A stretch of 64,000 bases of DNA from Halogeometricum pallidum JCM 14848. Lineage in GTDB: Archaea; Halobacteriota; Halobacteria; Halobacteriales; Haloferacaceae. The notes beneath the pieces were generated by a model. It ran no database searches, was not told the origin of the DNA, and was given only the letters and a program-made list of their open reading frames with translations. The stretch lies in assembly GCF_000337095.1 (NCBI RefSeq), contig NZ_AOIV01000038.1, positions 83,076 through 147,075 on the forward strand. The letters are read 5' to 3'. Position 1 is the first letter of the stretch. Each line of letters begins with the position of its first letter. Positions 4,926 through 6,561 of the stretch are shown one piece after another. The translations under genes and the position numbers were made by a program.

Positions 4926-4981
4926 CTGTGCGTCGCTGACGTTCAAACGCGTACTATGTTTACGGAGAATCGAGGAGAAAG

Positions 4982-5001
4982 CCCCGTCCTTTAGGGCGGG
5001 G
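4982..5001 (+). repeat. Left-end subterminal hairpin of the IS element
   Basis: An eight-pair stem (one G:T pair) closes a TTTA loop. IS200/IS605 transposases recognise such imperfect palindromes near the ends. Confidence 0.7.
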
Positions 5002-5090
5002 ATGAATCTGACAACTCCTACACATCCACCACCGATGGCAGACTCGGATATTCCACGCTCGAATCCATACCTTCTTATTTGTTTGATGAC

Positions 5091-5101
5091 ATAGGTTACG
5101 T
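5091..5101 (+). repeat. 11-base direct repeat, copy 1 (just before tnpB)
   Basis: ATAGGTTACGT occurs here, immediately before the probable original tnpB start, and again at 6367-6377 over the tnpB stop. Chance repetition of 11 bases at these two borders is unlikely. Confidence 0.7.
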
Positions 5102-5158
5102 ATTGCGAAACAGGTTGTCACCCGCACCTACATTGCGTCCATCAGGAACCAGCAACAG

Positions 5159-6370
5159 GTGTCTGATGACCTTGATTCGCTCGGGTTTTCAGCCTCGATA
5201 CTTTGGAACGTCGGACGGTGGGTCTGCGACCGCGAGTGGTCAGAAGTCGAGCACATTCCCGGCCACAACGAACTCACCACGTACCTCAAGTCGCACGAAC
5301 GCTATGATGACCTGCATTCTCAGTCAAGTCAGCGAGTCCTTCAAGAACTCGCTGAAGCGTTCAACGGCTGGCACGGCAAACGACGTAACAGAGACACGAG
5401 AGCGAACCCACCGAAGTACCGCAAACACAACGACGAACACCCGCGTTCAACGGTCACGTTCAAAGCCGCTGGCTTCAAACTCGACACCAAGTACGAGCGA
5501 ATCCGACTCAGCAAAGGCTCCAACCTCAAAGAATACTGGTCGGACTTCATCCTCTGCAAATACCAGACCCAACCCGACGTTGACCTCTCAACTGTAGAGA
5601 GCGTCCAACAAGTACGGGCAGTCTGGACTGGTGACGAGTGGGAATTGCACGTTGTCTGCAAGGTCGAAATCGAGGTGTCAGAAGCTCCCGGTGAGAATGC
5701 TGTGGGTGTTGACCTTGGCATCAACAACTTCGTCGCGCTCGCCTACGAAGACGGCCACAGCGAACTGTACCCGTTGAACTGTCTGAAGCAAGACGACTAC
5801 TACTTCAGCAAACGGATTGCTCGCTGTGATGATTCGGACTCCGAGCAGGCCACACGGTTGAACCAGAAGAAGTCGGCTCGCCGTACCCACTACTTCCACA
5901 CCCTCTCGAAACACATCGTCCAGCGGTGTGTTGACGAAGGCGTTGGAACGATTGTGGTGGGCGACCTCTCTGGTATCCGTGAGGACGAGGAGAACGATGA
6001 GTCAAAGAACTGGGGTCGGCACGGCAACCTTGACTTGCACTCATGGGCGTTCGACCGCTTCACTTCGATGCTTGAGTACAAGGCTGAGATGGAAGGCATC
6101 ACGGTCGAACAAGTATCTGAGCGGGACACGTCGAAGTCGTGTTCGTGCTGTGGCCGGAAGCGTGACGCCAACCGTGTTGAACGCGGGTTGTACGTGTGCG
6201 ATGAGTGCGGTACGGTGGCGAACGCGGACGTGAACGGTGCGGAGAACATTCGACAGAAAGTATCTCCGAGTCTCGCCTGTGATGGGGGAGATAGGAGTAA
6301 CGGTTGGTTGGCACAGCCATCGGTGTACCTGTTCGATTCAGAGAGCGGATGCTTCGCACCGCGAGAATAG
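5159..6370 (+). CDS. tnpB: TnpB, RNA-guided nuclease-type protein with variant RuvC-II site
   Basis: TnpB proteins are RNA-guided DNA nucleases, ancestral to Cas12, that help IS200/IS605 elements persist. The 403-residue product has the RuvC-I motif (GVDLGINNFVAL), a C-terminal zinc finger with two CxxC pairs (SCSCCG, VCDECG) and the RuvC-III motif (NADVNGAENI). At RuvC-II, where TnpB normally has a catalytic Glu (ED[LM]), this protein reads IVVGDLSGIRED, so Gly replaces Glu. The frame is open upstream to 5090 and reads AKQVVTRTY just after an ATT codon at 5102, where relatives, as I recall them, begin ATG. The start given here is a GTG that would remove about 19 residues. Activity is therefore uncertain. 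Confidence 0.88.
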   Translation: MSDDLDSLGFSASILWNVGRWVCDREWSEVEHIPGHNELTTYLKSHERYDDLHSQSSQRVLQELAEAFNGWHGKRRNRDTRANPPKYRKHNDEHPRSTVTFKAAGFKLDTKYERIRLSKGSNLKEYWSDFILCKYQTQPDVDLSTVESVQQVRAVWTGDEWELHVVCKVEIEVSEAPGENAVGVDLGINNFVALAYEDGHSELYPLNCLKQDDYYFSKRIARCDDSDSEQATRLNQKKSARRTHYFHTLSKHIVQRCVDEGVGTIVVGDLSGIREDEENDESKNWGRHGNLDLHSWAFDRFTSMLEYKAEMEGITVEQVSERDTSKSCSCCGRKRDANRVERGLYVCDECGTVANADVNGAENIRQKVSPSLACDGGDRSNGWLAQPSVYLFDSESGCFAPRE

Positions 6371-6377
6371 GTTACGT
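6367..6377 (+). repeat. 11-base direct repeat, copy 2 (over the tnpB stop)
   Basis: Identical to 5091-5101 (ATAGGTTACGT). It contains the tnpB stop codon TAG at 6368-6370. Confidence 0.7.
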
Positions 6378-6411
6378 CGTAAACCACAATATCCCAACGG
6401 CGGTCGGGAAT

Positions 6412-6434
6412 CCTCGCCCTTTAGCGCGGGGAGG
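6412..6434 (+). repeat. Right-end hairpin of the IS element
   Basis: CCTC/GAGG outer arms and a GCCC/GCGC inner stem around a TTTA loop. The inner stem carries one C:C mismatch, which suggests a point change that weakens the end. Confidence 0.6.
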
Positions 6435-6561
6435 ATGTCAAAGTAAGCGTACACCGTTCTTGGACGCCGTCGTTGGGACGATAGGCATTCGCCCTCGGTT
6501 TCGGTCCGGAGGGGGGAGTCCCGTCAGTTAGGATAGTAGGAAAAGCCTTCGAGCGGGACGG

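What the first reader, a model, noticed from the sequence alone, without database searches (positions are those of the whole stretch)
5159..6370. TnpB RuvC-II glutamate replaced by glycine
RuvC-I Asp, RuvC-III Asp and both zinc-finger Cys pairs are intact, but the usual Glu-Asp-Leu motif reads Gly-Asp-Leu (IVVGDLSGIRED). Either the active site uses another acid (the next residues are acid-rich) or the protein binds DNA without cutting. TnpB groups with moved catalytic residues and nuclease-dead TnpB-like repressors are described in the literature.
Basis: partly seen in the sequence, partly recalled or inferred. Interest (0 to 1): 0.6.

Follow-up and report, generated by a model that had tools for sequence, protein, structure and literature searches.

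The report
TnpB with relocated RuvC-II glutamate
The RNA-guided DNA-cutting protein in this salt-loving archaeon has glycine at the usual catalytic spot, but its whole sub-family carries the missing acid at another known position just before the zinc finger, so it is an ordinary member of a known TnpB variant, not a dead enzyme.

Summary
The glycine is real: VVGDLSG, Gly287 if residue 1 is the ATT at window 5102-5104. It is not a lost active site. The protein belongs to the 'Ealt' TnpBs, described by Yoon et al. 2023 (PMC10711439). In these the RuvC-II glutamate sits six residues before the zinc finger (E-x6-CxxC). Here that is E340 in E-RDTSKS-CSCC, codon 6119-6121. In 43 aligned close sequences, window included, D204, G287, E340 and D376 are invariant. 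Across 222 haloarchaeal TnpBs, 92 have only the canonical Glu, 126 only Ealt, none both and one neither. The AF2 model puts E340 on the loop after the fifth RuvC strand, before the zinc finger; Fanzors carry theirs there. The element is otherwise a standard tnpA-less IS200/IS605 unit: TTAC at the left end, GTCAA at the right end, and the haloarchaeal omega-RNA sot0042 (Rfam RF02656, E=1e-39). Selection is purifying (dN/dS about 0.1). Two cautions apply to this copy: its start codon is ATT where relatives have ATG, and cleavage is untested. A truly nuclease-dead, chromosomally fixed TnpB relative was found in other haloarchaeal genera and is listed in passing.

The parts
4960..4963 (+). TTAC flanking the left end: target site / presumed TAM
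   Evidence: Conserved at the left boundary in the alignment of 54 elements; TTAC in 24 of 27 pattern matches in relatives. TAM role inferred from IS200/IS605 biology.
4964..6441 (+). Whole element, 1478 bp, IS200/IS605-type tnpB-only (IS1341-like) unit; no tnpA between the ends
   Evidence: Sequence conservation begins at TTAC|GGAGAATC and stops abruptly after ..GTCAA|. Only full copy in the genome; other hits are partial at 68-77% or short end fragments. Syntenic loci of two congeners lack it.
4982..5001 (+). Left-end subterminal hairpin CCCCGTCC-TTTA-GGGCGGGG
   Evidence: Read from sequence; related motif recurs at the right end
5102..5104 (+). ATT codon where relatives have ATG (start codon of TnpB); residue 1 in this report's numbering
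   Evidence: (relatives..GGTTACGTATGGCGAAACAG); L052 and L114 (ATA) and L060 (ATT) are also non-ATG
   Evidence: purifying selection
5711..5713 (+). RuvC-I Asp, D204 (DLG motif)
   Evidence: Invariant 43/43
5960..5962 (+). Canonical RuvC-II Glu position, here Gly287
   Evidence: Gly 43/43 in close sequences; aligns with the Glu of AsCas12f (MEDL)
6119..6121 (+). Relocated RuvC-II Glu (Ealt), E340, in E-RDTSKS-CSCC
   Evidence: Matches ExxxxxxCxxC of PMC10711439; 43/43 invariant; mutually exclusive with canonical Glu in 219 scored TnpBs; on the loop after the strand 334-339
6140..6208 (+). Zinc finger C347-x2-C350 ... C366-x2-C369
   Evidence: Invariant columns in A2; PF07282
6227..6229 (+). 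RuvC-III Asp, D376
   Evidence: Invariant 43/43; first helix turn 375-385 in the model
6258..6441 (+). omega-RNA scaffold overlapping the tnpB 3' end (Rfam RF02656 sot0042 covers 6258-6432), ending ..GTCAA
   Evidence: 145 bits, E=1e-39; aligned scaffold ends at GTCAA in relatives
6411..6435 (+). Right-end hairpin TCCTCGCCCTTTAGCGCGGGGAGGA
6442..6461 (+). Presumed guide (AGTAAGCGTACACCGTTCTT...), i.e. the flank just outside the right end
   Evidence: Sequence turns variable here between elements; role inferred from IS200/IS605 TnpB biology; no other site in the genome matches TTAC+guide better than 3 mismatches

Best explanation
This is an omega-RNA-guided TnpB of a tnpA-less IS200/IS605 (IS1341-like) element in a haloarchaeon, belonging to the known Ealt class with a DLG RuvC-I motif. 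Its RuvC site is most likely D204-E340-D376: the RuvC-II glutamate has moved from the end of strand 4 (now Gly287) to the loop between strand 5 and the zinc finger, so a complete metal-binding triad is present. Mechanism: the sot0042-type RNA made from the 3' end of tnpB loads onto the protein, the sequence beyond the right end acts as guide, and DNA next to TTAC that matches the guide (in effect the empty donor site) is cut, favouring retention of the element. Shown here: the motif, its invariance, its mutual exclusivity with the canonical Glu, the element ends, the omega-RNA family match and purifying selection. Inferred: the three-dimensional contact, guide and TAM roles, and cleavage.
For: E340 matches the published Ealt signature exactly. 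In the same genome, copies with canonical Glu have Pro/Ala/Ser at Ealt, and copies with Gly/Ser at the canonical position have Glu at Ealt. Over 222 haloarchaeal TnpBs: 92 canonical only, 126 Ealt only, 0 both, 1 neither, 3 not scorable. Ealt sequences form one large clade plus one small separate group. D204, E340 and D376 are 43/43 invariant while D288 and the acid-rich run vary. In the AF2 model (mean pLDDT 74; blocks 281-290, 331-340, 371-380 at 85, 89, 84) E340 follows strand 334-339 and D376 starts helix 375-385, the placement described for Fanzor, with Glu on the loop between the fifth strand and the TNB domain (PMC11423790). Foldseek top hits are Cas12f, ISDra2 TnpB and mimivirus Fanzor2 (9b0l) at E of about 1e-14 or better. 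dN/dS is 0.09-0.15 against the closest relatives. omega-RNA RF02656, E=1e-39. 316 of 391 genomes of the class hold a match at E<=1e-20, though weak matches may be other TnpB groups.
Against: No cleavage data for this sub-family were found in the held library. This copy has ATT instead of ATG and ends 4 residues early, so it may be poorly translated. The covariation rests on few independent events (parsimony minimum of two changes).
Confidence: 0.92

Rival explanations
1. Nuclease-dead, DNA-binding TnpB (TldR-like): the loss of the RuvC-II Glu makes it an RNA-guided binder or repressor.
For: The canonical Glu is Gly in the whole sub-family; dead TnpB-like repressors exist (TldR, e.g. PMC13418256 listed).
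Against: A complete rearranged triad is invariant. The element still looks mobile: sharp ends, TTAC/GTCAA boundaries, variable insertion sites, absent from the syntenic locus of two congeners. A real dead TnpB in other haloarchaea looks different: it lacks both Glu positions and sits at one fixed chromosomal locus.
Confidence: 0.04
2. A neighbouring acid (D288 of GDL, or E294/D295 of the acid-rich run) replaces the Glu.
For: The positions are acidic in most relatives and follow strand 4.
Against: D288 is Asn in 6 of 43 and E294 is Lys in 4 of 43; paralogs L010/L014 read SWPEDV there; the run 291-312 is predicted disordered. Asp or Glu follows the Glu in most canonical TnpBs too, so it is no compensation.
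Confidence: 0.03
3. This particular copy is in early decay: its ATG has become ATT, so the protein is absent or starts at GTG 5159 without its first strand, whatever its catalytic chemistry.
For: ATT at 5102 against ATG in nearly all relatives; 12 residues not seen in 42 relatives; stop 4 codons early.
Against: The frame is open throughout, dN/dS is low, and catalytic and zinc residues are intact. Three relatives also lack ATG there, so non-ATG starts may be tolerated. This is compatible with the best explanation for the sub-family and concerns only this copy.
Confidence: 0.35

Closest known systems
Ealt TnpBs of the D-phi-G clade (Yoon et al. 2023, PMC10711439)
   Same: RuvC-II Glu six residues before the zinc finger, canonical position not Glu, RuvC-I D-L-G
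   Different: Nothing tested differs. This is a haloarchaeal IS200/IS605-type element; the paper's main text does not mention archaea (word search)
Haloarchaeal IS200/IS605 TnpB with sense overlapping transcript (sotRNA / omega-RNA, Rfam RF02656; PMC12558985)
   Same: omega-RNA family over the 3' end of tnpB, haloarchaeal host
   Different: Single copy here with an ATT start; no transcription data for it
Fanzor / pro-Fanzor (e.g. SpuFz1, PMC10432273; mimivirus Fanzor2, PDB 9b0l)
   Same: Same relocated Glu position by signature and by strand order; fold match
   Different: RuvC-I is DLG, not DPG; prokaryotic IS200/IS605-like element, not IS607 or eukaryotic
ISDra2 TnpB (PDB 8exa, 8h1j)
   Same: Domain order, fold, omega-RNA and right-end guide logic
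   Different: ISDra2 has the canonical RuvC-II Glu
TldR (nuclease-dead TnpB-like repressors)
   Same: Lacks the canonical RuvC-II Glu
   Different: Keeps a full alternative triad and mobile-element ends

Membership tests
TnpB (IS200/IS605 RNA-guided nuclease) | OrfB_IS605 and Cas12f1-like TNB domains in one protein | tested here: met
   PF01385, PF07282, NF040570 above cut-offs
TnpB (IS200/IS605 RNA-guided nuclease) | omega-RNA from the 3' end of tnpB running to the right end | tested here: met
   RF02656 at 6258-6432, E=1e-39; scaffold conserved to GTCAA
TnpB (IS200/IS605 RNA-guided nuclease) | RNA-guided DNA cleavage | not testable with these tools
   Needs a biochemical or plasmid-interference assay
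Ealt TnpB | Glu six residues before the first zinc CxxC (ExxxxxxCxxC) | tested here: met
   E340-RDTSKS-CSCC; 43/43
Ealt TnpB | No Glu at the canonical RuvC-II position | tested here: met
   Gly287; 43/43 Gly
Ealt TnpB | Relocated Glu lies in the RuvC metal site | tested here: inconclusive
   Strand order in the AF2 model fits; no coordinates to measure distances
Fanzor / pro-Fanzor | DPG motif at RuvC-I together with Ealt | tested here: not met
   DLG
TldR / nuclease-dead TnpB | RuvC triad broken with no compensating acid | tested here: not met
   D204, E340 and D376 all present and invariant
TldR / nuclease-dead TnpB | Loss of mobility and fixed genomic context | tested here: not met
   Element ends intact; absent from syntenic loci of two congeners

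The most novel reading that the evidence does not exclude
The large haloarchaeal Ealt sub-family has altered nuclease behaviour (for example nicking or no collateral cleavage) because of the moved Glu, with a distinct role in keeping elements in the genome.
Probability: 0.12. Interest if true: 0.45.

Novelty: new member of a known kind. Interest (0 to 1): 0.15.

Why it matters
It prevents a false 'dead TnpB' call: in haloarchaea a very common TnpB sub-family has Gly at the canonical RuvC-II site and carries the Glu elsewhere. Screens for nuclease-dead TnpBs that check only the canonical Glu would mislabel the whole sub-family. Checking both positions also exposed a conserved haloarchaeal protein that really lacks both (see noticed in passing).

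Tried and rejected
(1) Adjacent acids as replacement: rejected on conservation and predicted disorder. (2) LEYKAE glutamates about 38-42 residues after the Gly: considered early, dropped because canonical paralogs have the same motif. (3) Fanzor-like membership: rejected, DLG not DPG. (4) An exact empty site with joined flanks: only the gene flanks aligned in two congeners, the intergenic junction is diverged, so absence of the element is shown but not the precise junction. (5) Off-site targets of the guide in the genome: none better than 3 mismatches. (6) Direct alignment to the Fanzor2 chain 9b0l: found by search, but its alignment was not printed. (7) Two papers recalled on rearranged TnpB/Fanzor catalytic sites (Altae-Tran 2023; Jiang 2023) are not held, so they are leads from memory only. 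(8) Viral-contig scans gave few relatives, all with the canonical Glu.

Full report
What is there. The window lies in a haloarchaeal-type genome of 4.38 Mb (G000). The ORF at 5159-6370 is TnpB by Pfam and NCBIfam, and it reads VVGDLSGIREDEE where most TnpBs read x-E-D-L. Relatives show that the coding region begins at 5102, where this copy has ATT and nearly all others have ATG. Residue numbers below count that ATT as 1.

Is the Glu missing or moved? The same genome has 23 TNB-domain hits. Copies with the canonical Glu (VEDL, LEQL, LEDL, FENL) have Pro, Ala or Ser seven residues before the first zinc Cys. Copies with Gly or Ser at the canonical position (VGDL, VGEL, ISDL, VSWP, HGDL) have Glu there instead. 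Yoon et al. 2023 define exactly this: canonical E about 50 residues before the zinc finger, and alternative E (Ealt) six residues before it, with the pattern ExxxxxxCxxC; Ealt sequences fall into a D-phi-G clade and a DPG clade that holds the Fanzors (PMC10711439). The window protein has E340-RDTSKS-C347SCC and DLG, so it is a D-phi-G Ealt TnpB.

How general is it? I aligned 222 distinct haloarchaeal-type TnpBs: the own genome, ten genomes of different genera, 80 relatives from named species and a few from other searches. Canonical Glu only: 92. Ealt only: 126. Both: 0. Neither: 1. Not scorable: 3. On a tree of 111 representatives the Ealt sequences form one big clade plus a separate pair, so the anticorrelation rests on at least two changes, not 126 independent ones. 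In 43 ungapped close sequences, window included, D204, G287, E340 and D376 never vary, whereas D288 is Asn in six, E294 is Lys in four and Asp in one, and most of the rest of the acid-rich run varies. 316 of 391 genomes of the class have a match to the window protein at E<=1e-20.

Structure. AlphaFold2 on 38 aligned sequences gives mean pLDDT 74.3 and pTM 0.65. Strand 199-205 carries D204, strand 281-288 carries Gly287, strand 334-339 is followed at once by E340, and helix 375-385 carries D376. Residues 291-312, the acid-rich run, are below pLDDT 50. Xu et al. describe the Fanzor site as Asp on the second strand, Glu on the loop between the fifth strand and the TNB domain, and Asp on the helix (PMC11423790); in SpuFz1, E541 and D606 coordinate magnesium (PMC10432273). 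The order here is the same. Foldseek finds Cas12f, ISDra2 TnpB, ISFba1 TnpB and mimivirus Fanzor2. I had no coordinates, so distances were not measured.

The element. Conservation among elements starts at TTAC|GGAGAATC (4960-4963|4964) and ends at GTCAA| (6441). TTAC precedes the left end in 24 of 27 pattern matches. The right end shows as an abrupt end of conservation after GTCAA. Rfam sot0042 (RF02656) covers 6258-6432 with 145 bits; this is the haloarchaeal sense overlapping transcript now called omega-RNA (PMC12558985). There is no tnpA between the ends. The genome holds one full copy. Two congeners have the flanking genes without the element, so it is a fairly recent insertion or was lost there. 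The guide position (6442 on) has no other good TTAC-flanked match in the genome. Pairwise dN/dS against the closest relatives is 0.09-0.15.

Reading. The protein is a normal Ealt TnpB with a complete, rearranged RuvC triad. Activity is inferred from class and conservation and was not measured. For this copy the ATT start is the real uncertainty: either it initiates at ATT, or at GTG 5159 without its first predicted strand, or it is on its way to decay.

A true dead TnpB, elsewhere. The single sequence with neither Glu (L198) led to orthologs, apparently one per genome at this level, in eight genomes of one haloarchaeal genus (81-88% identical) and two of another (62-68%), while the next TnpBs drop to 54% and keep the canonical Glu. 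All ten have Gly at the canonical site and Pro at Ealt; the two of the second genus also lack the RuvC-I Asp (VLGVSLG, VLGVALG), and one has NDHYN for NDDYN. The flanking genes are the same in all ten: M50 peptidase with CBS domains upstream, then a cupin and a DEAD-box helicase downstream (SRAP further upstream in most). DNA after the stop is not conserved and no Rfam omega-RNA matches there. dN/dS is 0.12-0.25. This looks like a TnpB-derived host protein that lost nuclease activity and possibly its guide RNA. It is outside the window and deserves its own study.

Noticed in passing
L265-L274 and contexts L295-L304 (G147, G176, G024, G162, G172, G274, G383, G373, G326, G123); not in the window: A TnpB-derived protein, conserved in two haloarchaeal genera at one fixed locus (M50 peptidase/CBS - dead TnpB - cupin - DEAD helicase), lacks both the canonical and the alternative RuvC-II Glu; in the second genus the RuvC-I Asp is lost too. 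Purifying selection (dN/dS 0.12-0.25) and no conserved omega-RNA after the stop: a likely domesticated nuclease-dead TnpB.
   Followed up: partly
window 5102-5104: ATT in place of the ATG start found in nearly all relatives; L052 and L114 have ATA and L060 ATT at the same place, so non-ATG starts recur in this family.
   Followed up: partly
window 6368-6370: TAG stop four codons before the usual end of the family: relatives read CAG here and stop at the TAA within ACGTCGTAA.
   Followed up: no
L204 (G031) and L184 (G218): A second, apparently separate Ealt lineage (VVGDLGG / EEYDTSKTC) outside the main haloarchaeal Ealt clade.
   Followed up: no
L010, L014, L210: An Ealt sub-lineage in which the canonical motif is SWPEDV, so even the usual Asp-Leu is gone while E-x6-CxxC stays.
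   Followed up: no
L081, L083-L085, L103 and several genomes (matches from residue 77 with '1 TGA'): Several haloarchaeal copies share a TGA just before the codons for AQRVLQELAEAF, splitting tnpB at the same place; shared decay or a programmed event was not examined.
   Followed up: no
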